A stretch of DNA of 64,000 nt. It comes from Sphingobium sp. GTDB lineage: Bacteria; Pseudomonadota; Alphaproteobacteria; Sphingomonadales; Sphingomonadaceae. The stretch is from contig JAGIAZ010000005.1 of assembly GCA_017744605.1 (NCBI GenBank), positions 82,197-146,196 of the forward strand, read 5' to 3'. The notes under the pieces were generated by a model. The model was not told the DNA's origin. It worked only from the letters and a program-made list of their open reading frames with translations, and made no database searches. The stretch's first letter is position 1. Each line of letters starts with the position of its first letter. The position numbers were made by a program, and so were the translations under genes. Shown here in pieces: positions 13,752 through 55,091 of this stretch.

Positions 13752-13825
13752 GCGGGTATAGCTCAATGGTAGAGCACTAGCCTTCCAAGCTTGTGATGCG
13801 GGTTCGATCCCCGCTACCCGCTCCA
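13752..13825 (+). tRNA. tRNA-Gly (anticodon TCC)
   Basis: Cloverleaf by eye: acceptor GCGGGTA/TACCCGC, D-arm GCTC AATGGTAG AGC, anticodon loop CTTCCAA, T-arm CGGGTTCGATCCCCG, encoded CCA end. The anticodon stem has one T-T mismatch. The 3' 48 bases lie inside the phage att core, so the intact gene is rebuilt from host 5' and phage-derived 3' sequence. Confidence 0.95.
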
Positions 13826-13829
13826 GCCT
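13778..13829 (+). repeat. attL core (52-bp direct repeat)
   Basis: Identical over 52 bases to 54908-54959. It runs from the anticodon stem of tRNA-Gly(TCC) to four bases past CCA. The flanking bases differ on both sides (C/G and T/C), which fixes the limits. Confidence 0.95.
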
Positions 13830-13843
13830 TCATGCTGCAGATA

Positions 13844-15076
13844 TTAGCCATTTCTGTCGCCTCCAACAAGCTTCAGACGCGGCGCCGATGCGGTAACATT
13901 GCGGTATGCGCCAGGTGCCAGCGCTTCGATCTCGTCAATGATTTCCTCGGTCGCAGCCATCGCAAGGCCGAGATTCGCAGGGTCGATGATCGCGTAGATG
14001 TCCGACATGGCGAACGGTACGTGGCCGAGCATGATTTCGCCCTGCCGCCACTGCGCCTCACCTATCCGCTTGCGGGCAATCGTGGAGATCGACCGCCTGA
14101 TAAGCTTCGGGCCGGCCTCGCGATTTGCGGGCAGTTTCAGATGAGCGCGCAGCTTGTCCCATGATGCGCGCACGCTCGCTGCCTGTATCCAATTGCCTTC
14201 GAGTTCATCGAGCCACGGGCGCATCTGCTTGGCAATCGGCACCATGGGCAATCGCTTGTTGGTCCGCTGGCGCCGCACGGGATTCAGGTCCAACACATGG
14301 GCGGCGCTGTGCCACTGGTCGCTTCTCACCGCCAGAACGGTTTCAGGACGCGCCCAGGAGGCCACTGCGAGGCGAAGATACGCCAAGAGCGTCTGCCGCT
14401 CCTTGATGCGCAGCGCGATGAGCGCGTCCGATTTCTCCTCGGGGCGCAGGCAATAGTTGAACATCGCTGCGATCGTCTCGACGGGCACACGCAGTTTCGG
14501 GCTCTGCGTAACATTCACCTGCTGCTGCGCGGTGAACTTCGCACGCTGTCCTGGGACGGCATTGATCGCGGCGGCGAGCTGCATCACGCTGCCCTCAACA
14601 TGGGCCAGCGACCGGTCCCGCAGAACGCGGCCCTTGGGGCTGACAACGGGACGAGCAAGCGCCCATGCCCTGAATTTGACGATCCACGCTTCGTCGATCT
14701 CGGCGCAATGCGTTTCAGGCTTGGTTGCCGCAAGATAATCGATGACGTGAGACAGGCGGTGACGGCTCGCATCGTGACCGGCACTGCCCTCCCTGAGGAT
14801 GAGATAGTCGCCGATAGCTTGGCTGACCAAAGGTGAATACTCACCTTCCCATGGGCGCTGACAGGTCGGGCAAAGGCGTTCCCCCGCGTCATTCAGGTAG
14901 ATCCGGTCGAGGGCCTTGATCCCGGCTTGCAGATCGCTCGTGCCCGCGCTAGCTGATCGCTCGCGCTTAAGCTCGTCATCGTACCAGATGACTTCGAGGT
15001 TCGCACGGCCGGCGCGGCTGTGGAGGGCGTACTTGCCGCGCTGGTAGAGCGGCTTCTGGCGCTTCTTTGCAGGCAT
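13844..15076 (-). CDS. int: Tyrosine-recombinase phage integrase
   Basis: A 410-residue site-specific recombinase. N-terminal arm-binding region (QKPLYQRGKYALHSRAGRAN), a zinc-ribbon-like CPTCQRPW near residue 70, a core-binding domain, and a C-terminal catalytic domain with RPETVLAVRSDQW, LIRRSISTIARKR, the LGHV box and nucleophile Tyr361 in MSDIYAII. The box-II region lacks a textbook HxLRH, but the R, H and Y landmarks are present. It sits 18 bases from the tRNA, facing it. The first 184 bases of the gene also encode the end of the upstream ORF. Confidence 0.92.
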   Translation of the reverse strand: MPAKKRQKPLYQRGKYALHSRAGRANLEVIWYDDELKRERSASAGTSDLQAGIKALDRIYLNDAGERLCPTCQRPWEGEYSPLVSQAIGDYLILREGSAGHDASRHRLSHVIDYLAATKPETHCAEIDEAWIVKFRAWALARPVVSPKGRVLRDRSLAHVEGSVMQLAAAINAVPGQRAKFTAQQQVNVTQSPKLRVPVETIAAMFNYCLRPEEKSDALIALRIKERQTLLAYLRLAVASWARPETVLAVRSDQWHSAAHVLDLNPVRRQRTNKRLPMVPIAKQMRPWLDELEGNWIQAASVRASWDKLRAHLKLPANREAGPKLIRRSISTIARKRIGEAQWRQGEIMLGHVPFAMSDIYAIIDPANLGLAMAATEEIIDEIEALAPGAYRNVTASAPRLKLVGGDRNG

Positions 15077-20223: not shown

Positions 20224-20919
20224 TCAAACCACGCGCGGGCGATAGTCTCCAACTACGAGACCCTTAATTTCGATAGTGTTGACGCCGGCTGGCGGATTGC
20301 GTGGATCAATCGGAGCTTGATGTTCAGGGTCATTGCTCTGCGGCCATAGCCAAGGCTTGCCATCGATCTCGCGCAGAAGCTTCACCGTAGCCTCGATCAG
20401 GCCGTCATCGGCATGGCTATAGACGATCACATGGTCACCATCGCGCGGCGGCCTGGCGTCGAGAACATCAACCCAAATTACGATAGCGCCCTCGCGGTAC
20501 TCCCGGTCCATGGACGAACCGCGGACCTCGAGCGCCTTAGCGTGGCGTTTAAACCGATTCGGAACCGGCACGTCAACCGGATACCAGTCCTCTCTGTCCC
20601 ACTCCACGGCCTCTCTGAAATCCCCTGCCTGGACATGTCCTGCGACAATTATCTCGACCGGCTTTGTGATCTCCGGCTTTTCGCCGCTCAGTTCCCAAGA
20701 GGGAACGCCCGCAACGCGCGCCAACTTCGCATAGGTGCGGAGATCGAGTCCATCCGAATGGCCATTAAGGAAATTGTAGAGCGAGTTTTTCCCCACGCCC
20801 GCTTCCTTGGCCCAAGTGCCAGGACGCAGACGCCGATCCAGCATGAATTTCCGCAGAAGGTCGCGTTTTTGGTCGGGTGACAGGGCCATGCGGCGACGGC
20901 TAACAGAATAGAAGCCCAT
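20224..20919 (-). CDS. Phage repressor, S24 (CI/LexA-like) with HTH
   Basis: A 231-residue regulator. The N-terminal HTH is around residues 25-70 (DRRLRPGTWAKEAGVGKNSL). The C-terminal S24 peptidase/dimerisation domain has a likely Ala98-Gly99 self-cleavage site (GHVQAGDF), nucleophile Ser136 (VRGSSMD) and Lys180 (EATVKLL), so RecA-stimulated induction is expected. The start is ATG 20919, inside an operator-like site and nearly leaderless, or ATG 20889; the ORF-track start at 20982 would read through both operators. It is divergent from the Cro-like gene. Confidence 0.9.
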   Translation of the reverse strand: MGFYSVSRRRMALSPDQKRDLLRKFMLDRRLRPGTWAKEAGVGKNSLYNFLNGHSDGLDLRTYAKLARVAGVPSWELSGEKPEITKPVEIIVAGHVQAGDFREAVEWDREDWYPVDVPVPNRFKRHAKALEVRGSSMDREYREGAIVIWVDVLDARPPRDGDHVIVYSHADDGLIEATVKLLREIDGKPWLWPQSNDPEHQAPIDPRNPPAGVNTIEIKGLVVGDYRPRVV

Positions 20920-20932
20920 CCTGATGTGTTTC
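20911..20932. promoter_or_regulatory. Right operator site, degenerate (OR2-like)
   Basis: GAAGCCCAT-CCTG-ATGTGTTTC, 14 of 18 arm positions matching the operator consensus. It overlaps the repressor start codon at 20919. Start-to-start distance to the perfect site is 31 bases. Confidence 0.55.
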
Positions 20933-20941
20933 TGCTCTTGA

Positions 20942-20963
20942 AAAGCACATCCATATGTGCTTT
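20942..20963. promoter_or_regulatory. Right operator site, perfect palindrome (OR1-like)
   Basis: AAAGCACAT-CCAT-ATGTGCTTT, 9-bp perfect arms with a 4-base spacer, in the gap between the divergent repressor and Cro-like genes. It defines the operator consensus used for the other three sites. Confidence 0.85.
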
Positions 20964-20973
20964 GTGACCCGAC

Positions 20974-21180
20974 ATGGTTCATGAGATCATCAAGCGTGTG
21001 CGCGAGACCCTAGCCCAGCCGGGGATGAGCAAGCATAAACTGGCCATCGTCGCTGGCCTGCACCGCAACACTCTGCGTGACGTAGACGATCCGGACTGGA
21101 ACCCATCGGCCGCAACGTTGGCCGCTCTTGAGCCACATATCGTTGGCAGTGAAGTCGAAGCCTCCCCGGAGGCCGCATGA
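20974..21180 (+). CDS. Cro-like HTH protein, first gene of the rightward early operon
   Basis: A 68-residue protein with a helix-turn-helix (MSKHKLAIVAGLHRNTLRDV) and a helical N-terminal extension. It starts 10 bases after the perfect operator and is divergent from the repressor, the position of Cro in lambdoid phages. No ribosome site is evident before ATG 20974, so it may be leaderless. It is inferred to compete for the same operators. Confidence 0.75.
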   Translation: MVHEIIKRVRETLAQPGMSKHKLAIVAGLHRNTLRDVDDPDWNPSAATLAALEPHIVGSEVEASPEAA

Positions 21181-43496: not shown

Positions 43497-43900
43497 CGGG
43501 CGCGCTGGCAGCGATGGCTGGCATGGGGGGCTTGGGCGGCCTGATCTCGCTTTCTAATCAGTCGCCGGATTCTTCCGTTCCTGATCCCTCAATTGCGACA
43601 TCAGTCTATGAGTTGCGCTCTAGCGGCGAAGTTCAGGTCAACGGTTCAACAGTCGAAAACTTCTGTAATCCTACCAACCTCGCACCCCTCCTCGAATGCC
43701 GAATGACGATCAATTCTGGCTTCCTTAACGGAGGCACGATCAACACGTGGTTGAGCCTGGTCTCCAGCAGGCAGTGGTATGTACAGCAAGTTGGCATTGG
43801 TGTCTCGACCTGCAATTGTACGATTGAAATCCGGGAGGCCGCCAGTGGCATTGTCCGCGCGTCGGCAGCAATAACCTTCCATGCCGAGGTGTTCGGATGA
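43493..43900 (+). CDS. Hypothetical tail-associated protein (135 aa)
   Basis: GTG start in a GTGA overlap with the fibre gene. Hydrophobic Gly-rich start (LAAMAGMGGLGGLISL), then a beta-rich body with several cysteines (FCNPTNLAPLLECRMTINSG, STCNCTIEIREAASGIV). It may be a minor tail or fibre-assembly protein. No family recognised. Confidence 0.6.
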   Translation: MTGALAAMAGMGGLGGLISLSNQSPDSSVPDPSIATSVYELRSSGEVQVNGSTVENFCNPTNLAPLLECRMTINSGFLNGGTINTWLSLVSSRQWYVQQVGIGVSTCNCTIEIREAASGIVRASAAITFHAEVFG

Positions 43901-44175
43901 TCGGGCTTGCGCATCCATTCATAGCGCTTGGAGCCCAGTTTTCGCTTTTCGGCCTATTTGGCAATTGGTGGCTTGGCGTCATTGCCTCTGCCTTCTTCTT
44001 TGGCCGCGAAATTACGCAGGCCGAATATCGCTGGATCGCAGCTTATGGTTCCGGCCTCCGCGCCAACATGCCTTGGTGGGGCGCATTCGATCCACGTGTG
44101 TGGAACCTGCATTCTCTGACCGATTGCCTGCTGCCCCTTCTCCTTACTGCTGCCATCGCCGGGATCGCGAGCTGA
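43897..44175 (+). CDS. Small membrane protein in tail module (92 aa)
   Basis: Two or three hydrophobic segments (FIALGAQFSLFGLFGNWWLG, VIASAFFFG, LLPLLLTAAIAGIAS) around a soluble loop with REITQAEYRWIAAYG. Coupled by ATGA to the gene upstream and TGATG to the spike. It could be an extra holin-like or membrane protein; the location in the tail cluster is unusual. Confidence 0.65.
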   Translation: MIGLAHPFIALGAQFSLFGLFGNWWLGVIASAFFFGREITQAEYRWIAAYGSGLRANMPWWGAFDPRVWNLHSLTDCLLPLLLTAAIAGIAS

Positions 44176-47100
44176 TGCCGGGCATCCCCGTCGTCCTTTC
44201 TCCTCGCGGAGTTCCAGTGCGACAGGTTGAGACCGGTGCGCCTGTCATGACCGTTGCGGCCAACGGTTTCGGGACGCCTGTTTTCATCTCGGACTATGGG
44301 GCGCCGTTCGTCATCGAGGGTGGCACTCCCACGCCGACGCCCGGCCCTACCGCGACCATCGCCCTTAATGGCACGAGCGACGGCTTCGAGGTGACCAATC
44401 CCCTCACCGGGTCATCGTGGCAGTGGTATAAGGCATCGGACAACACGCCCATCTCCGGCGCGAATACGACAAGCCTTGCCCTGTCCGCGATCTCCTACGG
44501 GGAAGGCGCTTATGTCGTGCCAGACGGGCAGTCAGCGCGTAAATCAGGCGCGCTGTACCGCATCCCCGCCGTCCCCGATGCGACGATCACAACGCAAGAT
44601 CCCAACGGCAAGGCGAACGGCACGACACTGACCAACCCCGCCTTTGGCTGGACCCTCATTGGCAGCAAGGACAATGTTCTCACCGTCCAGTCCAACAAAT
44701 TCGCCTTCACGAATAATTATGCAAACGAGGGCGGATGGAAGAAGTCGCTCGGTTCCAAAGACCACTTCATTGGCTTCACGCACAAGCTCGTTGATGCCAG
44801 TGAAGACTACGGAATTAATAGATTCACAATCGGTGCACGCTATACCGACGCGAATAACCGCATCCAACTTGATTGCTCTTTCAAAACCGACAACGGCGGC
44901 TCTCTCGCAGTAGTTGTTGGCGGGACTGCAACCAATCTTAACGGCATATGGGCCATCCATTTCCCGACTATCGCCGATCTCGACGATGTCGGCCTGGAGG
45001 TAATCGGCTCGACAGCCTACATCTACTTCAAGGGCGCGGTCCTTCCACCCCATCCAGACAACCCGCGCAAGACCGCTGATAACGGCTACGACTTCTCAGA
45101 CTTGGCTCTGCCCGACTCTGATTATGTCGTGATCCACGAAATCGGCGGCAACAGCTTGCACGCGCTTCCTTATGATGTCGCCACCCGTATTACGCTGAAG
45201 TCATACGCCGAGTCCGACATCTTGATTGCCAGCACGGCATTCAGCGTTCCGACCAAAACGAATAACTTCATTGGTCTTTCCACGACCGGTGCTACTCCTG
45301 GCTCATCGGTCCTGGTCGGCTGGTTCGACGAGAATGGGCAACCGATCGCGGTGTCCGGCCCCTATTCAATCACGGCCGGCTCTCTTGCGCTTTCCGACGT
45401 GCCGGTGCCCCACGTCCTTCGCGGCCGTCCCGCCTCATTGATGGTTTGGAATCCGAGCGATCCTGCAGTTTTCGGCTACGTCCACTTCAACGCGATCCCG
45501 GCTTCGCAGCTAGTGCCCGCGATCGAACACGGCATCAATCTCGGCCAGTGGAACGCCACGGGCGGCGACTATGTCCGTGACCGTGGCCAGCTCATACGCT
45601 GGGTCGACTCTTCCGGCGGCGGTGACGTGCCGCTAGCCGCAAGCGGCTGGCCATCCGATACTCCGAACGTCGGCTCCTATTACGATGCGCTGATTTATGA
45701 AAGCGACAAGACCGAGCACCGCGCCGGTCAGTTCCGCATGACGTGGCCGGCCAACGTTACCGTGTCGAATGCTATTACTACCAATGTGACTGTCGACAGC
45801 ATCGATAACACCGCGCGCGAAGCGCTCTTCACCGTTATCGATGGCACACTGAATACGCTGCTGAGATTCCGGTTTACGCCCACAGGCGCTGTTCCTGGCG
45901 GTATCGTGGTGACCGTCCGACCCGTTGGCGACGCGCATCCCGAGCGTCCGTTCACCGACCAGTTGGGGCTGGATTACGGCATCGGTGCTGGTTTCCGCAG
46001 CGCCCGTTTCATGAAGCAGATGGGCACCGAGCTTCGGGGCGGTAACGATGATCCGGTCACTATTTATCCGCGCTACTTCACGCCCGCCAATGTGGCGTGG
46101 CTGATCAAAAATCTCGGCCTCAAGCCGCATCTTAGCTGGTCAATTCTCGAAACATCCACGTTCATCGAATCGTGGATGCTGAACCTCAAGACAGAACTGA
46201 TTGCGCTCGGCGTCGATCTGGTCGCCATTCAGATTTACGTCGAATTCGGCAACGAAATCTGGAATTGGGGCACCTATCAGCAGCAGGATCATCGCGCCCG
46301 ATGGCTGGCTGCGAAAGAAGGTTTTGTGCCCGGCATTGCGTCCGGCGAACGGCCCAACGTCATCTATTATTTCAACAACGGCTCGCACACGACCGATCGG
46401 TCCTTCAGCACAGGCGATGTCGTGTACAACGGCGATTATTATGTCGTGCGTGCGAAGCGGAACACGTCCGCCGGCGCAACGATGCCCGCCAATTCCGGCG
46501 AGAACAACGCAGACTTCGAATATGTAAACCGCGTCACCGCGTCGATGGTCGGCAAGTGGCAGGGCTCGCGGCAGAAGGCGCTTGCCCAATTGCTCAAGCC
46601 GCTCTTTCCGGCTGGCGTGGTCAAGTCTGTCCTTGGCTGTTTTATTAACGACAGCGCCGCCGACATCTGGAGCCGCATGTCCGACAACGGTGTGTGGAAG
46701 TGGGTCGATAGCTATCAGCCATCGGGCTATGTTTCCAGCCTTCAGGTCTATGGCGCCAACGCATTCGATGCGGCCGGCACCACGGCCGGCTACAAGGATG
46801 GCGTCTTCGCCTTCCTTGCCCCGGAACTTGCCGACACCAAGGCCAAGCTTCTCGCCCTCAAGCATGGTGTCGAACCGTTTATCGTCACCAGCCCAGACTA
46901 CACGCCTGGTGATACGACGCCCACCCTTGGCACCTATGAGATTAACTGGCATTGGGGCTATCTACACAGCACCGTTCCCGACGACGCCGTGCTTGCGGCC
47001 CGCATAGCGGCGGTCACCCAGGACGCGCGCTGGACGGCGATGGTCGAAGACTATTGCGACTGGCTCATCGAGAACATCGGCGGCCCGCACAACTGGTTCG

Positions 47101-47252
47101 TTGATGTCGAAAGGCGCCCGACCTATTTCGGAAGCGCGGGCGACAAGCAGTTCCAGATTTTTGGGATCAAGGATAACTATGTCGGCGCCCGGCCCAGTGA
47201 GCAACTGACCTACAACGTGGTCAGCGCGAAGGCGTTGGCGGTGCTGTCATGA
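44175..47252 (+). CDS. Tail spike with glycoside-hydrolase-like domain (1025 aa)
   Basis: The ORF track adds 98 shadow residues; the real start is MPGIPVVLSPRGVPVRQVET in a TGATG overlap. Parts: short head-binding region, Pro/Thr linker (TPTPTPGPT), Ig-like segment (SSWQWYKASDNTPISGANTT), lectin-like beta region (residues of about 160-450), and a TIM-barrel-like C-terminal half with IYVEFGNEIWNWG, the clan GH-A type Asn-Glu motif, and a later GTYEINWHWGYL that may hold the nucleophile. It probably binds and cleaves a surface polysaccharide. Confidence 0.7.
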   Translation: MPGIPVVLSPRGVPVRQVETGAPVMTVAANGFGTPVFISDYGAPFVIEGGTPTPTPGPTATIALNGTSDGFEVTNPLTGSSWQWYKASDNTPISGANTTSLALSAISYGEGAYVVPDGQSARKSGALYRIPAVPDATITTQDPNGKANGTTLTNPAFGWTLIGSKDNVLTVQSNKFAFTNNYANEGGWKKSLGSKDHFIGFTHKLVDASEDYGINRFTIGARYTDANNRIQLDCSFKTDNGGSLAVVVGGTATNLNGIWAIHFPTIADLDDVGLEVIGSTAYIYFKGAVLPPHPDNPRKTADNGYDFSDLALPDSDYVVIHEIGGNSLHALPYDVATRITLKSYAESDILIASTAFSVPTKTNNFIGLSTTGATPGSSVLVGWFDENGQPIAVSGPYSITAGSLALSDVPVPHVLRGRPASLMVWNPSDPAVFGYVHFNAIPASQLVPAIEHGINLGQWNATGGDYVRDRGQLIRWVDSSGGGDVPLAASGWPSDTPNVGSYYDALIYESDKTEHRAGQFRMTWPANVTVSNAITTNVTVDSIDNTAREALFTVIDGTLNTLLRFRFTPTGAVPGGIVVTVRPVGDAHPERPFTDQLGLDYGIGAGFRSARFMKQMGTELRGGNDDPVTIYPRYFTPANVAWLIKNLGLKPHLSWSILETSTFIESWMLNLKTELIALGVDLVAIQIYVEFGNEIWNWGTYQQQDHRARWLAAKEGFVPGIASGERPNVIYYFNNGSHTTDRSFSTGDVVYNGDYYVVRAKRNTSAGATMPANSGENNADFEYVNRVTASMVGKWQGSRQKALAQLLKPLFPAGVVKSVLGCFINDSAADIWSRMSDNGVWKWVDSYQPSGYVSSLQVYGANAFDAAGTTAGYKDGVFAFLAPELADTKAKLLALKHGVEPFIVTSPDYTPGDTTPTLGTYEINWHWGYLHSTVPDDAVLAARIAAVTQDARWTAMVEDYCDWLIENIGGPHNWFVDVERRPTYFGSAGDKQFQIFGIKDNYVGARPSEQLTYNVVSAKALAVLS

Positions 47253-47503
47253 GCGGCACGACCAACACCCAGATCGCCGAAAAGCTCGACGAGGTTCTGG
47301 CCGAGCTCGCCGCGACCAAGGGCGAAATTGAGAAGCTGGCCCTGCAATCCAAGCCGGTTATCGAAGCATATGACGCGGTTGCGAAGACCGGGAAGGTCCT
47401 CAACTGGGTCGGCAAGGTGGCCGTGTGGATCGTGGCAATCGCCGCGGCGATGGCGCTGCTCTGGGGCGCGTTCAAGATCGCCGTAAAAGGAACGCTGTCA
47501 TGA
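47249..47503 (+). CDS. Coiled-coil protein with C-terminal TM helix (lysis module)
   Basis: An 84-residue protein: coiled coil (IAEKLDEVLAELAATKGEIE) and one TM near the C terminus (VAVWIVAIAAAMALLWGAF). Coupled by ATGA to the spike and the endolysin. The layout matches XhlA-like holin partners. It resembles in architecture, not in sequence, the immunity-region protein at 18487-18927. Confidence 0.7.
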   Translation: MSGTTNTQIAEKLDEVLAELAATKGEIEKLALQSKPVIEAYDAVAKTGKVLNWVGKVAVWIVAIAAAMALLWGAFKIAVKGTLS

Positions 47504-48063
47504 GCATCATGACCGACAAAGAAATCTTCGCTGCGATCCGGGCGCGACGTGGGGCCCCGCTCCTGCAAGCGGACGTGGATGCCGTGAATGCGGTGCTGTA
47601 TCCAGCTGGAGAGAAAGCGCCGATGACGATCAGCCAGCGAGGCATTGACCTGATCAAGCGGTGCGAGGGCCTACGGCTGAGCGCCTATCCTGACCCTGGC
47701 ACAGGCGGGGCGCCATGGACTATCGGTTACGGGCACACCGGCCCGGAAGTACGCAAGGGCCTCACCATCACGCAGGCGCAGGCGGATACCTTTCTGGTGG
47801 CAGATATCCAGCGGTTCGAGGCGGACGTGCGGGCACTATGCCCCATCACCACGCAGGGACAGTTCGATGCACTGGTGAGCTTTGCCTACAACGTGGGCCA
47901 GTCCGCTCTCTCCGGCAGCACCATGCGCAAGAAGCATGTTGCGGGGAACTATGCGGGCGCCGCTGCGGAATTTGATCGCTGGGTCTATGCTGGCGGGCGG
48001 ACGATGGCTGGACTTGTCGCGCGCCGCGCGGAAGAGCGCGCGCTCTATGAGGGGCGGGCATGA
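47500..48063 (+). CDS. Endolysin, GH24 phage lysozyme (RrrD/T4-type)
   Basis: A 187-residue muramidase. Catalytic triad Glu56 (RCEGLRLSAY), Asp65 (YPDPGTGG) and Thr74 (WTIGYGHT), with FDALVSFAYNVGQ and a C-terminal RRAEERALYEG as in GH24. It has a 40-residue N-terminal extension (MTDKEIFAAIRARRGAPLLQ) and no signal peptide, so release needs a holin. The start was chosen at the ATGA overlap; the ORF-track start is 25 codons too early. Confidence 0.92.
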   Translation: MSIMTDKEIFAAIRARRGAPLLQADVDAVNAVLYPAGEKAPMTISQRGIDLIKRCEGLRLSAYPDPGTGGAPWTIGYGHTGPEVRKGLTITQAQADTFLVADIQRFEADVRALCPITTQGQFDALVSFAYNVGQSALSGSTMRKKHVAGNYAGAAAEFDRWVYAGGRTMAGLVARRAEERALYEGRA

Positions 48064-48353
48064 GCTGGACGGCGCGAGACTGGCGGCAATTTACCGCTCT
48101 CACCCTTCTCGCCCTTGCCGCGATTCCGCTAACGCTCATCAGCGCGATGTCGCGCGTCATCATCTACCTGCAGCCGCACAACAGCTTCGCCTTCTACCTC
48201 GGCTTATCGAACGACGTGCTCATCCTCGTGGACCTGGTCTGCGTGGGGACGATCCTCGGCCGGCGCACCTTCAAGATCAAGGTGGGCGACAACGAGATCA
48301 ACGCCGACGGCGGCGATGGCGAGCGTGTCCTGAACCAAGGAGATGCCGCATGA
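48060..48353 (+). CDS. Putative holin (two-TM protein, 97 aa)
   Basis: Two hydrophobic helices (FTALTLLALAAIPLTLISAM and NDVLILVDLVCVGTIL) with a charged C-terminal tail (KIKVGDNEINADGGDGERVL). It lies directly after the endolysin with an ATGA overlap and before the spanins, the usual place for a class II holin. The alternative is a minor membrane protein. Confidence 0.65.
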   Translation: MSWTARDWRQFTALTLLALAAIPLTLISAMSRVIIYLQPHNSFAFYLGLSNDVLILVDLVCVGTILGRRTFKIKVGDNEINADGGDGERVLNQGDAA

Positions 48354-48646
48354 TCGGCCTCGCCACCTTCCTCGCCAGGCCGCTGGTCAAGTTCGGCGTG
48401 CCGGTGCTCCTGCTCGTGGGCGCCGCTCTGTGGTTCGCCCTCTGGCTCTCAGGCGTGAAGCATGACGCCAAGCAGGAGGGCGTTACCCAAGAGCGAACTG
48501 GAGCTCTCGTCGAAACCGTCAACCGAATGGAGAATGCCAGTGACACGCGCCGTGACATTGCCAATCCCGCTACTCGCGCTCGCTATGATGAGTGCCTGCG
48601 GTCCGCAAGAACCCCCGAGAACTGTAAGCGATTTCTGCCTCAATGA
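48350..48646 (+). CDS. Inner-membrane spanin (Rz-like)
   Basis: A 98-residue protein: N-terminal TM (FGVPVLLLVGAALWFALWL) then a periplasmic helical part (KHDAKQEGVTQERTGALVET). In the ORF track it is hidden inside a longer shadow frame. ATG is in an ATGA overlap with the holin candidate. A nested o-spanin in another frame supports the call. Confidence 0.75.
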   Translation: MIGLATFLARPLVKFGVPVLLLVGAALWFALWLSGVKHDAKQEGVTQERTGALVETVNRMENASDTRRDIANPATRARYDECLRSARTPENCKRFLPQ

Positions 48647-48779
48647 CCGAGAAGTGAAGTTCGATCCGGCGCCGTCAGCGGACGTGGACGACCGGGGCAA
48701 CAAGCTCGACACTGACCAGACGGTCAAGGACCTTATTGAGCACAATGCAGTTTATCATCGGTTGTGCGATAATAGATAA
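48534..48779 (+). CDS. Outer-membrane spanin lipoprotein (Rz1-like), nested in Rz
   Basis: Read in a different frame from inside the Rz-like gene (113-base overlap). It has a lipoprotein signal: TRAVTLPIPLLALAMMSAC, with the lipid-accepting Cys followed by GPQEPPRT. The mature part is about 60 residues, longer than classical Rz1. The start is ATG 48534 or GTG 48540; the GTG has GGAG at better spacing. Together with Rz it would fuse inner and outer membranes at lysis. Confidence 0.72.
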   Translation: MPVTRAVTLPIPLLALAMMSACGPQEPPRTVSDFCLNDREVKFDPAPSADVDDRGNKLDTDQTVKDLIEHNAVYHRLCDNR

Positions 48780-48796
48780 GCCGCCATTCGGAGCGG

Positions 48797-48988
48797 GTGG
48801 CCTTCAAATCCGATTCTCCGACCTACACGCACATCCAGTGCCCGAAATGCGGCCATGAAAAGACACTTGCCACATGGAAGCTCTACAGCCTGTATCGCGA
48901 GAAAGGCTGTCTGACCGAACCCGATTTCAGCAAGCTCGTCTGTTCACGCTGCGGGACTAAGGGCGCCACCGTCAGAGGGAGGGGTTGA
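48797..48988 (+). CDS. Small zinc-ribbon protein (63 aa)
   Basis: GTG start. Two CxxC knuckles (HIQCPKCGHEKTL and KLVCSRCGTKGATV) form a zinc ribbon. It is the last rightward gene and is convergent with the right-end leftward operon. It may bind nucleic acid or regulate; unknown. Confidence 0.6.
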   Translation: MAFKSDSPTYTHIQCPKCGHEKTLATWKLYSLYREKGCLTEPDFSKLVCSRCGTKGATVRGRG

Positions 48989-49048: not shown

Positions 49049-50083
49049 TTAAGCTGCCGGCGCCTCTCGGGCCACTACATCTCGCCTCGGACGGGCTCTC
49101 AGCAGCTTGAGCAGCGGCTTCTCGGCCAGCACATGCACCGCGATGCCAAAGACCACGCAGGCGAGCGCGACGGAGACCGGGATCGCGGCAACTCCCGCTG
49201 GAACGAGCGTCACCAGCGCCAAGATCACCGCTTCGTGATTGAGGTAGAGCGCATAGCTGCTGTCGCCCAGCTTGCCGATGCGCTGCAAGAGCGGGTGCGA
49301 GCCTGCGTGCCGTTCCCAGCATACCAGGCCCAGCACAAGCAACAGGCTCGGAGCCCCGAACGAAAAGGCTTCCCGCGTCTTGTCGTAGCCTATGGCCAGC
49401 ACGAGCATGAACAGCAGGATCGCGGCCCCGGTGATCGCGGCGCCCCAACGTTCCGGCAACTTGCCACGGACAGCCAGCCAACCGATCGCTGTGCCGCCCA
49501 GGAACTCCAGCAGCAGCACGCTCGTCATCTGGTTGAGCAGCGGGCCCTGGTTGTCGATGAGCGTGCCTACAGCGACGCAGCACAAGAAGAAGGCGGCGAG
49601 GATCATAAGCCCGCGCGTCAGGCCCAGCATCATCGCCAGGCCAAAGCAGATATAGAAATAGACCTCGAACGAGAGCGTCCATGCTGCGCCGATGAACCGG
49701 GGCGCGTCCGCCGGCAGCAGCAGCAGGGCTCCAATCGAATGCGTGAAGCTCACCGCGAAAGGCTGGCCGAACGCGGCGGCGGTTGCGAGCAGCAGCAAGA
49801 CCGAGATCCAGTAGATCGGGTAGATGCGGCCGAACCGGCGCGCGATGAAGTCCTTGAAGCTGTATCGGCTCTCGTTGGTGGTCATCACCATGATGAAGCC
49901 GCTCAGCACGAAGAACATGTGAACGCCTGCCCGCCCGAACGCGAACACGTACATCTCGGCTTCGGAGGCGGTGGCCAGATGTCTTTCGATCAAGACCAAA
50001 TGCGCGTGGTAGAGCGCGACCATGAATGCGGCCACGGCTCGCATCACCTGTAATGAATGCAATGTTCCACGCACTTGGTTCAT
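49049..50083 (-). CDS. Acyltransferase-3 family membrane protein (candidate surface-conversion gene)
   Basis: A 344-residue integral membrane protein with about ten TM segments. Acyltransferase-3 marks: RAVAAFMVALYHAHLVL (catalytic-type His near the first TM), FFVLSGFIM, RRFGRIYPIYWISVLLL and WTLSFEVYFYICFGL. It transfers acyl groups to cell-surface glycans, as O-antigen acetylases of other temperate phages do. Start 50083 overlaps the upstream 27-aa ORF by ATGA; the ORF-track start is 87 codons too early. Last gene of the leftward right-end operon. Confidence 0.88.
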   Translation of the reverse strand: MNQVRGTLHSLQVMRAVAAFMVALYHAHLVLIERHLATASEAEMYVFAFGRAGVHMFFVLSGFIMVMTTNESRYSFKDFIARRFGRIYPIYWISVLLLLATAAAFGQPFAVSFTHSIGALLLLPADAPRFIGAAWTLSFEVYFYICFGLAMMLGLTRGLMILAAFFLCCVAVGTLIDNQGPLLNQMTSVLLLEFLGGTAIGWLAVRGKLPERWGAAITGAAILLFMLVLAIGYDKTREAFSFGAPSLLLVLGLVCWERHAGSHPLLQRIGKLGDSSYALYLNHEAVILALVTLVPAGVAAIPVSVALACVVFGIAVHVLAEKPLLKLLRARPRRDVVAREAPAA

Positions 50084-50163
50084 CCGCTCCATATCCGAAT
50101 AGCCGCCCATAACAGGGAAAGTGTGAATAGTCCGCAAAGGAGGGATTTGGTGGATGATTTCAT
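50080..50163 (-). CDS. 27-aa membrane peptide coupled to the acyltransferase
   Basis: MKSSTKSLLCGLFTLSLLWA followed by AIRIWSG: a single hydrophobic helix with basic N terminus. It has ATGA overlaps with both neighbours. It may be only a translation-coupling leader or a micro-protein. Confidence 0.45.
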   Translation of the reverse strand: MKSSTKSLLCGLFTLSLLWAAIRIWSG

Positions 50164-50375
50164 GATGCCTTGGCATGCTCTGCCTCCACCGCCTCGCTGG
50201 CCTTGAGGTCGGCGGGGCGAGATATCTGCTCGGCTTCGAAGCGGGCGAAGGCTTGAAAGAGCGGGTGATCGTCGAGGCGTCCAGCTCGGGCAGCTTCTCT
50301 GGAGGCTTTCGCCCAACGGTAACGCATAAAGTCAGCCGCTGCATCCCTATGTCGCTGCTCAGGGGATGAGGTCAT
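50160..50375 (-). CDS. Hypothetical phage protein (71 aa)
   Basis: Helical and charged: RHRDAAADFMRYRWAKASRE, then PLFQAFARFEAEQISRPADL. ATGA overlaps on both sides place it in the leftward operon. No domain recognised. Confidence 0.6.
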   Translation of the reverse strand: MTSSPEQRHRDAAADFMRYRWAKASREAARAGRLDDHPLFQAFARFEAEQISRPADLKASEAVEAEHAKAS

Positions 50376-51040
50376 GCGGATGCCTTCCCGTGACCGAGAA
50401 AGCGCAAGATCCGATATGCCGCCTGAACACCGTTATTGGTGTTCTGCCGCTGCCAAGCCCCTTCGCGCGGCGACCAGCGGAAGGCCTCGCGCTTGAGTTC
50501 GGCAATGGTCTCAGCTTCCGGCTTCCCGTCGAACAGGAGCTGGATGCGATCGAGCGTGGTGTTTTGCACGAGACGGACGCCGGGGAATTCGATGGAGCGG
50601 TGCTCGACGGTTGCGGCCTGCGCGCTCAAGGCAGCCCTATCGGCCCGGCGGGTCTGGTGATCCAGCCATGAGGTCGGGCGATGAGCGAAGGCGTAGAATT
50701 CCTCACCTTTGCGGCGCTCGGAAGCCATAGCTTTTTGATTGCGTGCAACGGGGAAGTTGGCCGGGCCGGTGATCATGGGATTCGCCGTGCGGGCACCTGC
50801 GGCTTGATAGGCGAGCCAAAGCTGAATGGCCTTGGCAGACCACTGCTCAACCTGTTCAGTAGAGGCGCCACGCTCGACCAATGCGGCGATTCCGTCGCCG
50901 ATTTCCTGCTCAGCGCTAGTGATTGCGCTCTCCGCCCGCTGTTTCGGCGAATGGGAGCGCTCGTTCCAGTTGCGGGAGAACTGATCTAAGCCGCCGACCG
51001 CCGAGAGCAGACGCTGCTTGATATCTTCTTCGCCGCTCAT
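50372..51040 (-). CDS. Hypothetical phage protein with DUF3560/LPD-like features (222 aa)
   Basis: N-terminal helical part (MSGEEDIKQRLLSAVGGLDQ), a central NFPVARNQKAMASERRKGEE segment, and a C-terminal GVRLVQNTTLDRIQLLFDGK followed by REAFRWSPREGAWQRQNTNN. The last segment resembles large-polyvalent-protein-associated domains on phages and plasmids; this is a loose impression. It is coupled by ATGA to the 71-aa gene. Confidence 0.6.
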   Translation of the reverse strand: MSGEEDIKQRLLSAVGGLDQFSRNWNERSHSPKQRAESAITSAEQEIGDGIAALVERGASTEQVEQWSAKAIQLWLAYQAAGARTANPMITGPANFPVARNQKAMASERRKGEEFYAFAHRPTSWLDHQTRRADRAALSAQAATVEHRSIEFPGVRLVQNTTLDRIQLLFDGKPEAETIAELKREAFRWSPREGAWQRQNTNNGVQAAYRILRFLGHGKASA

Positions 51041-51080
51041 ACGTCCCCCTTATCCTCTTCCCGACCCTGATGGCTGGCGG

Positions 51081-51275
51081 TCATGGCTTTAGTCCTTCGC
51101 GGTCGATTTGAGATTGGACGGACGAGGGCATTTCCTTGAGCGTCATTGGCTTGCCGCAGGTCCGGCAGCGCGGACGGAGCGACGAGTGAAAGATGCGCCA
51201 GCGTCTCGCCCGAACGGTCAGCTTCGGATGCTCGGGACAATGCCAGGTATCTTTGTGCGCGGCCCATCTAGCCAT
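51081..51275 (-). CDS. Small Cys/His zinc-binding protein (64 aa)
   Basis: DTWHCPEHPKLTVRARRWRI and RPRCRTCGKPM hold C-x2-H and C-x2-C pairs that could bind one zinc. It overlaps the next upstream gene by 8 bases. The competing ORF 51037-51267 in another frame lacks such features and was rejected. Confidence 0.6.
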   Translation of the reverse strand: MARWAAHKDTWHCPEHPKLTVRARRWRIFHSSLRPRCRTCGKPMTLKEMPSSVQSQIDREGLKP

Positions 51276-51630
51276 TCCCCTTTCCCTTCATGGCCGAGAA
51301 GGTGGCGAGGGCTGCGTCACATTTCGACCGGGCCAGTTGCAGCGGCACAGCGTCTTCGGGCTCTCCGTCCCAATCGACATAATGCTGGTGCAGCGCTTCC
51401 CTCGCCTCGGCCAGCGCCTCCACCAGAACCTCTATGCCGGGTGCGGGGGTGGAGAGGCGATGGCGGGCGAAGGCTTGGACCCAATAATGGCTGTCATTGT
51501 CTCCGCGCCGAATTTCGGCAGACTTACATTCGATGATGCAGTTGCGGGATTTTTCGATAAGCAGGTTCGCCGCCGCCTCCCGATCCGCTTGGGTGATCTC
51601 CACCCCCTGCTGCTTGTCATGGTTGGGCAT
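51268..51630 (-). CDS. Hypothetical phage protein (120 aa)
   Basis: Helical protein: QADREAAANLLIEKSRNCII and IEVLVEALAEAREALHQHYV. The EVLVEALAEAREAL segment recurs in phage hypothetical proteins. Overlaps with both neighbours (8 and 14 bases). Confidence 0.6.
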   Translation of the reverse strand: MPNHDKQQGVEITQADREAAANLLIEKSRNCIIECKSAEIRRGDNDSHYWVQAFARHRLSTPAPGIEVLVEALAEAREALHQHYVDWDGEPEDAVPLQLARSKCDAALATFSAMKGKGNG

Positions 51631-51859
51631 GGTGTTCGGCTCCTAATCCTATATCAGCCGCCGTCATCAGTGGCATCGGCAGGAGAATGTCGGCAGCAAT
51701 CATCTCTCGCCGCCCAGCGCGTCGATCTTCAACTTTGCGGCGAAATTCGGCCTCGTAGTCGTAGGCGACTTGAGCAAAACGCGGCCCATGCCGTTGCTCG
51801 ACGACAAATGCGGCTGTGCGCATTCCGAGCATCAGGGCGTCTTCGAATGGAACGGCCAT
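51617..51859 (-). CDS. Hypothetical phage protein (80 aa)
   Basis: MAVPFEDALMLGMRTAAFVV then RFAQVAYDYEAEFRRKVEDR: short helical protein. It sits one base after the ASCH gene's stop and overlaps the next gene by 14 bases. No domain recognised. Confidence 0.55.
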   Translation of the reverse strand: MAVPFEDALMLGMRTAAFVVEQRHGPRFAQVAYDYEAEFRRKVEDRRAGRREMIAADILLPMPLMTAADIGLGAEHHAQP

Positions 51860-51860
51860 C

Positions 51861-52334
51861 CTACCCCTCCCTCTCTTTGGACGCGCCGATCTCCTGGGTG
51901 GCGAGGGCTCTTAGGGCGGCTGCGACAGCTGCGTTCGTAGCCGTGTCGAGCCGGAAAAAACCGAGCTGGCCTTTGCACGGGATGAGCGGAAGCGGGGTCG
52001 CATCGTTCAAGACGAAGCCATAGCGTCCGAAGAACCAATCGCTCTCCATCTCGGTCACGCAATCGACGATGCGCGCAATGCCGACGACACCGCCGCGAGG
52101 CAGATCATATTCGCTCGGCGCGCACTCGCTCTTGCTGACGCCGGCATGCACGATGAACCAGCCTCTGCCCTTGGTTGGCCAGTCGCGGTTCTCAACGTCC
52201 TTGCCATCGTGGAAGATGTTGTGCGGATAGGGCTGCTTGATCGACAGAGCCTTAATCTCGCCGCGCTCAATCCTGCCCGCCAACGCCAGCAACGCCTCCC
52301 CGCGTCCTTCGGGCTGTGGGGATGGGTTAGGCAC
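51861..52334 (-). CDS. ASCH-domain protein
   Basis: A 157-residue protein with the ASCH (PUA-like) fold pattern: IKALSIKQPYPHNIFHDGKD, ENRDWPTKGRGWFIVHAGVS, GGVVGIARIVDCV and a final LPLIPCKGQLGFFRLD. ASCH domains bind or act on RNA or modified nucleotides; some are amidohydrolases or ribonucleases. In a phage operon with a DNA methyltransferase it may handle modified bases or counter-defence. Specific activity is not inferable. Confidence 0.85.
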   Translation of the reverse strand: MPNPSPQPEGRGEALLALAGRIERGEIKALSIKQPYPHNIFHDGKDVENRDWPTKGRGWFIVHAGVSKSECAPSEYDLPRGGVVGIARIVDCVTEMESDWFFGRYGFVLNDATPLPLIPCKGQLGFFRLDTATNAAVAAALRALATQEIGASKEREG

Positions 52335-52755
52335 TGACCCGCTCCCATTCCGCGGGATCGATGCCCGGCTGCTGATAGTCGGCGATCTTGCCAGCCCCGT
52401 CGATTTTCAGGATGATGTAGTCGCCATAACCATTGTCGCCGTGGCAGAGGAAATCGCCCGGCACGTAGTAGTCGCGATACTTGGCGATGCGCTCGCCGTT
52501 CTTATCGAGCAGCCAATATTCGCCATCGTCGCACACCTTGTAGTGGACGTTGGCCGTCATGTCTTTGGGCCAGCCCTCGATGCGACCTTCCGCGAGATTG
52601 ATCTTGACGCGCCACCGATCGTTGTCGGCGCCGAAGATGGTCGGGTTTTCGTCCGTTTCATCGACGCCGTTGACCGATGCATCCTCCCAATAGCGAACGC
52701 CGGCATCGACTTCGATGTGTGTCGCCCCCGCATTCTGGCCCATATCCTCAGTCAT
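52327..52755 (-). CDS. Hypothetical phage protein (142 aa)
   Basis: Starts MTEDMGQNAGATHIEVDAGV; the ORF-track frame adds 74 shadow residues. Acidic and beta-rich: RYWEDASVNGVDETDENPTI, VHYKVCDDGEYWLLDKNGER, RDYYVPGDFLCHGDNGYGDY. No family recognised; it looks like a single soluble beta domain. Overlaps neighbours by 8 bases on each side. Confidence 0.65.
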   Translation of the reverse strand: MTEDMGQNAGATHIEVDAGVRYWEDASVNGVDETDENPTIFGADNDRWRVKINLAEGRIEGWPKDMTANVHYKVCDDGEYWLLDKNGERIAKYRDYYVPGDFLCHGDNGYGDYIILKIDGAGKIADYQQPGIDPAEWERVSA

Positions 52756-53011
52756 CGACGATCTCCGTTTCGCAAGTGCTGCTCGACAGATTGATGCCCA
52801 TATCGTTCGACGGGCCGTAGCCTTCGATGAACGACGGCAGCCAATCGACGAGGCCGCGAGCATGAAGCTGGGCAAGGTGCTGGGCGTGATCTTCGATTGT
52901 GTCGAAGGGATAGAAGCTCGCGCGGAACTCCTCCATGAAGGCGTCGTCGAACTTCTCCGCGTCCAGCTCGACCTCAATCCGCTGGGTCACATCGACCGTG
53001 AACTTGGTCAT
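52748..53011 (-). CDS. Hypothetical phage protein (87 aa)
   Basis: MTKFTVDVTQRIEVELDAEK then DTIEDHAQHLAQLHARGLVD: short acidic protein. A similar FTVxVTxxxEVELD start is common in phage accessory proteins. Upstream AAAGGA supports the start; it overlaps the next upstream gene end by 38 bases. Confidence 0.65.
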   Translation of the reverse strand: MTKFTVDVTQRIEVELDAEKFDDAFMEEFRASFYPFDTIEDHAQHLAQLHARGLVDWLPSFIEGYGPSNDMGINLSSSTCETEIVDD

Positions 53012-53258
53012 CTGCTTGTCCTTTCATGATGTGGTTGCGGAGGGAGATTCCGTCAGATGTCAGGCGATCGCGGTGGAAGGCCACTGGCTCGGATAGCCCT
53101 CGTGATCTCAGCGCGCTCTGCTCACGCATATGCATCCATGCGCGTGTCAGATAATCGCCGTTAAAGGCTTCTCTTGCCGACAAGATGTTGAACCGCATCT
53201 TCGGCGTCAGCCCCTTCTCTAGGGCCGCCATCCGCTCAAGGTCGGTGGGGGGATTCAT
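52974..53258 (-). CDS. Hypothetical phage protein (94 aa)
   Basis: Starts MNPPTDLERMAALEKGLTPK in an ATGA overlap with the methyltransferase; the ORF-track frame is 142 codons too long. The first 75 residues look coding (YLTRAWMHMREQSALRSRGL); the last 15 lie over the next gene. Function unknown. Confidence 0.55.
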   Translation of the reverse strand: MNPPTDLERMAALEKGLTPKMRFNILSAREAFNGDYLTRAWMHMREQSALRSRGLSEPVAFHRDRLTSDGISLRNHIMKGQADDQVHGRCDPAD

Positions 53259-54751
53259 GCTGCGAGGCTTTCGGATTTGATCTGGTCGACGAGATGGATG
53301 CGCTCGCCGATCCAGCGCATCACCGGGACCGCCATGCTGTTGCCGAGCATCTTGTAGCGCGGGCCATCGGCCATCATGCGGCCGCGGTAAGGGATCAGCG
53401 TGAAGTCGTCGGGAAAGCCCTGAAGGCGCTCGCACTCGCGCGGGGTGAGGCGGCGGACCCCCGATCGAACGATGTAGTCGCCACCCTGGTTTCCGCCCAC
53501 AGGGCCGCCCGCCATCACGGGCTGTGCAACGTCTGTCTCGCGCGCCTTGTAATCCTTCCCGCTGTTCATCGGCATGATGGAGAAGGCGACGGCAGCTGCC
53601 TGGGGCGATTGCGAGCCCAGCGAGCCGAACACATGCTCGGACGAGCAACAATCCTCGCGACTGTTGAACGCGATCGGCGAGCATATAGCCCCAACACCGA
53701 GCCCGCCTCTTCCACCATTGGGCGTCAAGATGGCATTGGCCGTTCCGTCAGATCGCCATTCAAGGTTCGGCACACCGTTCCGGCCACGCTCCATGAGAAC
53801 GAATGTCTCGCTCTCGAAGTCCTGTCTGCCATGCGGGCCACCATGCGAATTCAACGCGGCGGAAACGTCAATTGGCCCAGCGGTATTATTTCCACCGAAG
53901 GCGATAAGATGTCCGTGTCCGTGGTTGGCGTCTTGGCCGGAACATCCCTGAAGCCGACTAAAGCTGGCATCGAGGCATGGAGCTACCTCTTGCGCAATTA
54001 GCCCTTCGTCGCAATCAAAGTCGGTCCCGAGGCCGCCACCTCCAGTGCTGCGGCTAGGGCTGGTGGGAGCGCTTTGCCCCGGGCCTCTGCGCGGCGCAGG
54101 ATGCCCCGACAGGCCGTGGCGCTCAAAAAGTACCGCTGCGGCACGTCGCCAGTCTCCAAGATATCCGACAACGAAGACGCGACGGCGGCGCTGTGGAACT
54201 CCGGCATATTGTGCGTCGAGCACTCGGTAGGCGATCCCGTACCCGAGTTCTTGTAGTCCGGCCAGGAAACATCCGAACGCATGGTCTTCGTCTGCGTCGT
54301 AGCTATCTTCGACCACGATCTCTTCCCCGTCTTCGGGTCCGTCACCGGTGTCCAAGTCGATTTGCGGTGGACAGAAATCGGGAGCGTCGTGGGAAAGCGC
54401 GCTGAAAACTCCGGGGACATTCTCCCAGACGACCCAGCGGGGGCGTGCACGACCAGCAAGCTTGAGAAATTCGAGGGCCAAGTTGCCACGGTCATCAGCC
54501 AGTCCGCCTCTGAGACCTGCGATGCTGAACGACTGGCAGGGGGTTCCTCCGACAAGAAGGTCAACTGGTCCAAATTCGTCGCCTTGTATTTGGGTGAAGT
54601 CGCCCACGAGGGGGACGTCGGGATAGTAGTGGGCCAGCACAGCGCGGGGAGCGGCCTCGATCTCGGCATAGCAGAGCGCCTGCCATCCGAGCGGCTTCCA
54701 AGCTGCCGTGGGGGCACTGATGCCGGAACAGACATCGATGTAGCGGATCAC
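53255..54751 (-). CDS. C5-cytosine DNA methyltransferase
   Basis: A 498-residue enzyme: motif I IDVCSGISAPTAAWKPLGW, catalytic PCQ at residues 71-73, ENV at 110-112, QRRRRVFVVG (motif VIII), and motifs IX-X RLTPRECERLQGFPD and GNSMAVPV. The region of about 215-420 is a long target-recognition domain. No restriction endonuclease is next to it, so it is an orphan enzyme, probably protecting phage DNA. It is the promoter-proximal gene of the leftward right-end operon, 156 bases from attR. Confidence 0.94.
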   Translation of the reverse strand: MIRYIDVCSGISAPTAAWKPLGWQALCYAEIEAAPRAVLAHYYPDVPLVGDFTQIQGDEFGPVDLLVGGTPCQSFSIAGLRGGLADDRGNLALEFLKLAGRARPRWVVWENVPGVFSALSHDAPDFCPPQIDLDTGDGPEDGEEIVVEDSYDADEDHAFGCFLAGLQELGYGIAYRVLDAQYAGVPQRRRRVFVVGYLGDWRRAAAVLFERHGLSGHPAPRRGPGQSAPTSPSRSTGGGGLGTDFDCDEGLIAQEVAPCLDASFSRLQGCSGQDANHGHGHLIAFGGNNTAGPIDVSAALNSHGGPHGRQDFESETFVLMERGRNGVPNLEWRSDGTANAILTPNGGRGGLGVGAICSPIAFNSREDCCSSEHVFGSLGSQSPQAAAVAFSIMPMNSGKDYKARETDVAQPVMAGGPVGGNQGGDYIVRSGVRRLTPRECERLQGFPDDFTLIPYRGRMMADGPRYKMLGNSMAVPVMRWIGERIHLVDQIKSESLAA

Positions 54752-55091
54752 CGCCCTTCCCCCGCAATATCCTGTGAGGGGGAGAGGTGGGAGGAGGTGC
54801 GGTAAAACTGCGGTATCAGCCCGAGATGTTCCGTCTTGAATCCCGCTCTGTTCCGTGAATGTGCCTGCACATCCTTTCGGAAAAACCGCTGAAATCCGCG
54901 ACTTCCGTAGCCTTCCAAGCTTGTGATGCGGGTTCGATCCCCGCTACCCGCTCCAGCCTCTCGCCACATCGCGCCCCATTACAATTTGACACAATCTTGC
55001 CCCGGCGCGACAAAGTCGCGTGACAAGTCTATCCTAGAAGCCTCCTCACAGCGTCGCCCCACACGGCGCTGCCCCTACAAGGAAGCTTCCG
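54752..55091. other. Non-coding prophage right end and junction
   Basis: No convincing gene. It contains the presumed leftward promoter for the methyltransferase operon, a short palindrome ATGTGC-CT-GCACAT at 54859-54872 that uses the operator half-sites in the opposite arrangement, attR, and about 130 host bases ahead of the EF-hand gene. Confidence 0.6.
54908..54959 (+). repeat. attR core (52-bp direct repeat)
   Basis: Exact copy of 13778-13829, a 3' tRNA-Gly fragment from anticodon stem through CCA. The tRNA 5' half is absent here, so it is not a functional tRNA. Confidence 0.95.

What the first reader, a model, noticed from the sequence alone, without database searches (positions are those of the whole stretch)
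49049..54751. Leftward right-end operon of about twelve genes headed by an orphan C5 methyltransferase
Seen: methyltransferase, small unknowns, ASCH-domain protein, more small unknowns and acyltransferase are nearly all joined by 4-38-base overlaps and oriented against the late genes. Inference: an accessory package combining DNA modification, RNA or nucleotide handling (ASCH) and surface conversion; some of the unknown small proteins could be anti-defence factors.
Basis: partly seen in the sequence, partly recalled or inferred. Interest (0 to 1): 0.52.

Follow-up and report, generated by a model that had tools for sequence, protein, structure and literature searches.

The report
Prophage methyltransferase with swappable recognition modules
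At one end of a bacterial virus's dormant genome sits a run of small accessory genes led by a DNA-marking enzyme whose DNA-recognition part is a string of about six interchangeable blocks drawn from a pool shared by many viruses, probably letting one enzyme hide the virus from several bacterial DNA-cutting defences at once.

Summary
A 41-kb prophage lies in tRNA-Gly(TCC), between 52-bp att repeats at 13778-13829 and 54908-54959. Thirteen leftward ORFs (49049-54751) run from attR into the convergent late genes; 11 of 12 junctions overlap by 4-38 bp. They are a C5 methyltransferase, small unknowns, an ASCH protein (confirmed by profile) and an acyltransferase-3 gene (start about 50083). The set is not a conserved package: in 271 loci and 94 same-genus genomes no more than two of these genes recur together. 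Such a right-end leftward block next to attP, downstream of int, is the geometry of lambda ea47-ea31-ea59. The surprise is the methyltransferase. Between motifs VIII and IX it carries about six modules of 25-42 aa, and relatives carry up to eight modules in other combinations. Module repertoire is unrelated to catalytic-core identity (46% of pairs with 80-89% identical cores share no module), while module order is conserved (96% versus 69% expected). The best reading is a multispecific anti-restriction methyltransferase of the Bacillus phage SPR/phi3T type, expressed from the circular phage genome. Multispecificity itself is untested. New variant of a known kind.

The parts
13778..13829 (+). 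attL: 3' part of tRNA-Gly(TCC), 52-bp direct repeat
   Evidence: identical to 54908-54959; tRNA at 13752-13825; same att core beside related integrases in G052, G114 and G026
13844..15076 (-). tyrosine-type integrase, reads toward attL
   Evidence: 48.5% identical over its whole length to phage tyrosine recombinases; 66-70% relatives next to tRNA-Gly(TCC)
20224..20982 (-). S24-type phage repressor, in the leftward gene run that ends with int
   Evidence: PF00717 E 2.7e-9
53255..54751 (-). g1: C5 cytosine methyltransferase with a module array (motif IV at aa 68-75, VI 109-114, VIII 187-191, IX 433-447, X 467-477)
   Evidence: PF00145 E 3.5e-46, TIGR00675, phrog_116, motif positions
53996..54070 (-). 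recognition module W0 (aa 228-252)
   Evidence: family found in 19 of 75 arrays; coordinates
53903..53995 (-). recognition module W1 (aa 253-283)
   Evidence: family found in 14 arrays
53798..53902 (-). recognition module W2 (aa 284-318)
   Evidence: family found in 30 arrays
53672..53797 (-). recognition module W3 (aa 319-360)
   Evidence: family found in 4 arrays
53588..53671 (-). candidate recognition module W4 (aa 361-388), not found elsewhere by profile
   Evidence: only the window itself; resembles AFNARQ...LDTDG segments of L123 and L135 by eye
53468..53587 (-). recognition module W5 (aa 389-428)
   Evidence: family found in 12 arrays; DNA up to 90% identical to another locus
52974..53258 (-). 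g2, 94 aa, unknown
   Evidence: no family; no viral relative
52748..53011 (-). g3, 87 aa, phage protein of unknown function
   Evidence: phrog_19384 E 1.4e-21; in Caulobacter, Brevundimonas and Erythrobacter phages
52327..52755 (-). g4, 142 aa, unknown
   Evidence: 9 viral loci and 2 same-genus genomes
51861..52334 (-). g5, ASCH-domain protein
   Evidence: phrog_3193 E 1.4e-38; family profile to ASC-1 structures E 3e-12
51617..51859 (-). g6, 80 aa, unknown
   Evidence: open frame with SD-like site only
51268..51630 (-). g7, 120 aa, unknown
   Evidence: 4 viral loci
51081..51275 (-). g8, 64 aa, CxxC-containing
   Evidence: open frame only
51037..51084 (-). g9, 15 aa, possible leader peptide
   Evidence: overlaps both neighbours by 4 bp
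50372..51040 (-). g10, 222 aa, C-terminal domain shared with DUF3560 and primase-tail proteins of phages and conjugative plasmids
   Evidence: phrog_19458 E 3.1e-25; 247 plasmid records, 170 conjugative; R388 copy between a zincin-like metallopeptidase gene and ssb
50160..50375 (-). g11, 71 aa, unknown
   Evidence: open frame only
50080..50163 (-). g12, 27 aa, possible single-span membrane peptide
   Evidence: open frame only
49049..50083 (-). g13, acyltransferase-3, probable O-acetyltransferase
   Evidence: PF01757 E 4.7e-26; phrog_3333 O-acetyltransferase E 9.1e-48
54908..54959 (+). attR
   Evidence: 52-bp identical repeat

Best explanation
The right-end block is the far part of the phage's leftward transcription unit. 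In the circular phage genome the order is repressor region, small genes, int, attP, methyltransferase, small genes, acyltransferase. Integration at tRNA-Gly cuts the unit between int and the methyltransferase and moves the block 40 kb away. The methyltransferase is a multispecific anti-restriction enzyme. One conserved catalytic core is served by about six short recognition modules lying in tandem between motifs VIII and IX. Each module is thought to address a different short target, so that one protein protects phage DNA from several host restriction enzymes during infection or after induction. Modules are gained and lost by recombination within a pool shared by many phages, but keep their relative order. 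The remaining genes are independently acquired accessories. Shown here: geometry, catalytic motifs, module array, shared module families, repertoire turnover and order conservation. Inferred: that modules are functional recognition domains, that several sequences are methylated, early expression, and silence in the lysogen.
For: Motifs and array. Pool: 75 non-redundant enzymes, 39 module families covering 74% of array residues, 65 of 75 arrays with at least 3 modules, window W0-W1-W2-W3-W4-W5. Decoupling: mean Jaccard of module sets 0.10-0.13 for core identities from 40 to 89%; 46% of pairs at 80-89% share none. Order: 407 of 424 co-occurrences in majority order, against a shuffled mean of 69% and maximum of 73%. 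Mosaic at DNA level: best relatives of core, W0, W1, W2, W3 and W5 are mostly different loci, with W5 90% identical. Weak similarity of families M5/M32/M25 to the second recognition stretch of phi3T methyltransferase, and of arrays to P1 Dmt. Tandem recognition domains in one polypeptide protecting against many RM systems, and phage modification enzymes silent in lysogens, are documented (PMC12707154 section 65; PMC8936443). Expression: no promoter-like site better than shuffled sequence between attR and the methyltransferase, no terminator-like site between int and attL, 222 bp from int stop to methyltransferase start in the circle. P1 dmt has a C1-repressor operator.
Against: No methylation data; modules could include degenerate, inactive ones. 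AlphaFold2 gave low confidence over the array (pLDDT about 30-47; also in the short-array relative), so the modules' fold is not shown. The similarity to phi3T recognition domains is weak after correction for 39 families. Absence of a sigma-70 consensus in a 61% GC host is weak evidence against a private promoter. W4 has no relative by profile. Only 5 of 74 relatives had a recognised integrase nearby, so the link to int is not general.
Confidence: 0.66

Rival explanations
1. The methyltransferase recognises one target; the long region between motifs VIII and IX is a tolerated repeat-like insertion that varies for structural or immune-escape reasons, and only one module is a working recognition domain.
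For: AlphaFold2 finds no confident fold in the array. In the known Bacillus enzymes some modules are inactive (own knowledge, not tested here).
Against: Module families are often 60-90% identical between enzymes whose cores are no more alike, implying selection on each module. At least 65 of 75 enzymes keep three or more. Order is conserved.
Confidence: 0.2
2. The block is a lysogenic-conversion (moron) operon expressed in the prophage: methylation alters host gene expression and the acyltransferase changes surface polysaccharide to exclude other phages.
For: Position next to attR; acyltransferase-3/O-acetyltransferase match; phage-encoded methyltransferases can change host expression (PMC13076061).
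Against: No promoter-like site upstream. ASCH relatives lie in gene runs just upstream of integrases, not in conversion loci. A methyltransferase relative lies among recombination and replication genes.
Confidence: 0.25
3. The block is a conserved anti-defence island whose genes act together.
For: Tight overlaps; g10 relatives in conjugative plasmids, in R388 between a zincin-like metallopeptidase gene and ssb; occasional pairs such as methyltransferase with ASCH (L201), with g3 (L169) or with g4 (G045).
Against: No locus among 271 fetched keeps more than two of the genes, and none of 94 same-genus genomes searched with g4 and g10 keeps the block.
Confidence: 0.1

Closest known systems
Multispecific C5 methyltransferases of Bacillus phages (SPR, phi3T, SPbeta, rho11, H2)
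   Same: Orphan temperate-phage enzyme, one C5 core, tandem recognition stretches of about 40 aa between motifs VIII and IX, order of domains described as sequential (Wilke 1988, cited in PMC8936443).
   Different: About six modules here and up to eight in relatives, drawn from a pool of some 39 detected families spread over phages and prophages of many bacterial groups; sequence similarity to phi3T modules is weak; specificities unknown.
Lambda b region (ea47-ea31-ea59)
   Same: Leftward genes between the late genes and attP, just across attP from leftward int (NC_001416); in the prophage they lie next to attR.
   Different: No homologous genes recognised; 13 small overlapping genes led by a methyltransferase.
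Phage P1 Dmt (C5 half)
   Same: Related C5 core and array-like modules; phage-encoded.
   Different: P1 fuses it to an adenine methyltransferase and controls it by a C1 operator; here the only control proposed is separation by integration.
Acyltransferase-3 O-antigen acetylases of temperate phages
   Same: PF01757/phrog_3333 protein near the attachment site.
   Different: Acceptor and effect unknown; co-oriented with a methyltransferase operon.

Membership tests
Multispecific C5 methyltransferase | C5 core motifs I, IV (PCQ), VI (ENV), VIII (QRRRR), IX, X | tested here: met
Multispecific C5 methyltransferase | Enlarged variable region between motifs VIII and IX | tested here: met
   241 aa between the motifs in the window; VIII-to-IX span median 236 in relatives
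Multispecific C5 methyltransferase | Several tandem recognition units of about 40 aa | tested here: met
   six modules of 25-42 aa, five with independent homologues elsewhere; sequence level only
Multispecific C5 methyltransferase | Fixed sequential order of units among enzymes | tested here: met
   96% majority order versus 69% shuffled
Multispecific C5 methyltransferase | Units homologous to experimentally mapped Bacillus phage recognition domains | tested here: inconclusive
   weak matches of M5, M25, M32 and M7 to phi3T; none of W0-W5
Multispecific C5 methyltransferase | Methylates two or more different target sequences | not testable with these tools
   needs methylome data
Multispecific C5 methyltransferase | Orphan: no partner endonuclease | tested here: met
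   no other defence-family hit among the ten operon proteins scanned; g9, g11 and g12 not scanned
Lambda b-region-type block | Leftward genes directly across attP from leftward int, convergent with late genes | tested here: met
Lambda b-region-type block | Own leftward promoter | tested here: inconclusive
   best sigma-70 match no better than shuffled sequence
ASCH domain | Profile similarity to a solved ASCH domain | tested here: met
   ASC-1, E 3e-12; EOLA1, E 1e-3
Acyltransferase-3 family | PF01757 above cut-off | tested here: met
   92.1 bits against cut-off 31
Acyltransferase-3 family | O-acetylation of host surface polysaccharide | not testable with these tools
   needs a biochemical assay

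The most novel reading that the evidence does not exclude
Phages and prophages of very different bacteria share one pool of dozens of position-ordered C5 recognition cassettes, exchanged independently of the catalytic core, so that orphan phage methyltransferases act as evolving multi-target anti-restriction libraries; the array of each enzyme records which restriction systems its phage lineage met. The P1 Dmt C5 half would belong to the same pool.
Probability: 0.45. Interest if true: 0.72.

Novelty: new variant of a known kind. Interest (0 to 1): 0.52.

Why it matters
If modules are addresses, the many phage cytosine methyltransferases of unknown target become decodable: assign a motif to each of some 39 module families once, and the protection range of any phage enzyme could be read from sequence. 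That would bear on restriction escape, phage host range in laboratory strains, and tools for methylating chosen sites. It also offers a concrete test of how temperate phages keep a broad methyltransferase silent in the lysogen (splitting the operon at attP).

Tried and rejected
Conserved operon across related prophages: rejected. Free shuffling of modules: rejected, order is conserved. Structural proof of the modules by AlphaFold2: failed twice, low confidence in the array. Core searches against PDB only returned C5 methyltransferases. General placement of this methyltransferase beside an integrase: not found, 5 of 74 loci with a limited integrase profile, although L066, G029 and L201 do show a methyltransferase just upstream of int. 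Relatives with the same integrase (G052, G114, G026) carry other cargo; the weak methyltransferase match in G052 and the 578-aa methyltransferase in G026 match g1 only in the C-terminal region, so they are not evidence that this enzyme travels with this integrase. Viral scans for g2 and g3 gave nothing.

Full report
Setting. The window lies in a 3.37-Mb draft genome. A perfect 52-bp direct repeat, the 3' part of tRNA-Gly(TCC), occurs at 13778-13829 and 54908-54959 and nowhere else in the window. The same att core lies beside 66-70% identical integrases in three same-genus genomes. The prophage is therefore 13778-54959 and the finding is its right end. The integrase (13844-15076) reads leftward into attL; an S24-type repressor (20224-20982) and a run of small genes lie upstream of it in the same direction.

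The observation. Thirteen minus-strand ORFs fill 49049-54751. Eleven of twelve junctions overlap by 4-38 bp and one has a 1-bp gap. The acyltransferase start is best placed at 50083. Homology supports seven of the genes; six are supported by layout only.

What the genes are. g1 is a C5 cytosine methyltransferase. g5 is an ASCH protein: single-sequence hits to ASC-1 are weak, but the family profile reaches E 3e-12. g10 has a C-terminal domain found in phage primase-like proteins and in conjugative plasmids; in R388 it lies between a zincin-like metallopeptidase gene and ssb. g13 is an acyltransferase-3 protein. g3 is a phage protein of unknown function. The others are unknown.

Synteny. I searched loci brought in by g1, g4, g5, g7 and g10 for all thirteen proteins. 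No locus keeps more than two. The pairs seen are methyltransferase with ASCH (L201, L183), with g3 (L169), with g4 (G045) and, more distantly, g7 with a methyltransferase (L270) and g4 with ASCH (L263). ASCH relatives at 63-75% identity usually sit one or two genes upstream of an integrase in prophages. The block is therefore an assembly of individually mobile accessories, drawn at least in part from a pool normally found in the int-proximal operon.

Geometry. In the circular phage, int is followed after 222 bp, across attP, by g1 in the same direction. No promoter-like site better than shuffled sequence lies between attR and g1, and no terminator-like site lies between int and attL. Lambda has the same layout with ea59-ea31-ea47. 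My inference is that the block is the distal part of the leftward unit, fed from upstream after infection or excision, and cut off by integration.

The methyltransferase array. Between motif VIII (aa 187-191) and motif IX (aa 433-447) lie 241 residues that include six modules, W0-W5. I extracted 75 non-redundant enzymes (the window's own included) from genome and viral contigs and built profiles iteratively. Thirty-nine module families cover 74% of the array residues; some families overlap, so 39 is approximate. Sixty-five of 75 arrays have three or more modules, up to eight. Two tests matter. First, the repertoire is decoupled from the core: mean Jaccard similarity of module sets is 0.10-0.13 from 40% to 89% core identity, and 46% of pairs at 80-89% share no module. 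Second, order is conserved: 407 of 424 ordered co-occurrences follow the majority order, where shuffling gives 69% on average and never above 73.3% in 200 trials; only 9 of 287 pairs sharing two stretches are permuted. At DNA level the window enzyme is a mosaic: the nearest relatives of the N-terminal core, W0, W1, W2, W3, W5 and the C-terminal core are mostly different loci, and W5 is 90% identical to L172.

Comparison with known systems. One core with tandem recognition domains is the defining design of the Bacillus phage enzymes (PMC12707154 section 65; PMC8936443), and their sequential domain order has been described (Wilke 1988, cited). Families M5, M25 and M32 weakly resemble the second recognition stretch of the phi3T enzyme, with no match to its reversal. 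The C5 half of P1 Dmt carries similar modules and its promoter has a C1-repressor operator, which fits silence in lysogens. In the papers I could search, array enzymes are described only for Bacillus phages; subscription literature and REBASE were not available, so prior description cannot be excluded.

Limits. No methylation data exist here. AlphaFold2 did not resolve the array. W4 has no relative by profile. The order test does not remove all effects of shared descent, although the flat Jaccard curve shows descent explains little of the repertoire. The step from module to recognition domain rests on analogy with the Bacillus enzymes.

Verdict.

Noticed in passing
L293:2986-5250 (phage P1 AF234172, dmt): The C5 half of P1 Dmt shows about three array-like modules related to those found here, which suggests its cytosine part may also be multispecific.
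   Followed up: partly
window 17007-17420: Many 12-bp tandem repeats inside a DUF6745 protein gene (16277-17674, minus strand), encoding runs of AATxAATx-like repeats.
   Followed up: no
L255:11957-14974 (same-genus genome G029): A methyltransferase with W0-, W2-, M0- and W5-like modules, split into two ORFs, lies directly upstream of an integrase-like gene.
   Followed up: partly
L292:2274-4010 (same-genus genome G026): A 578-aa C5 methyltransferase-like gene with a different core lies a few genes upstream of an integrase 66% identical to the window's, at the same tRNA-Gly.
   Followed up: no
L257:5443-6219 (plasmid R388): A DUF3560 protein sharing the C-terminal domain of g10 sits near a zincin-like metallopeptidase gene and directly before ssb; a possible establishment or anti-defence factor shared by plasmids and phages.
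   Followed up: partly
window 43881-48988: The late region next to the finding holds a 1123-aa tail-like protein and a lysozyme/holin-like lysis cluster reading rightward into the leftward block.
   Followed up: no
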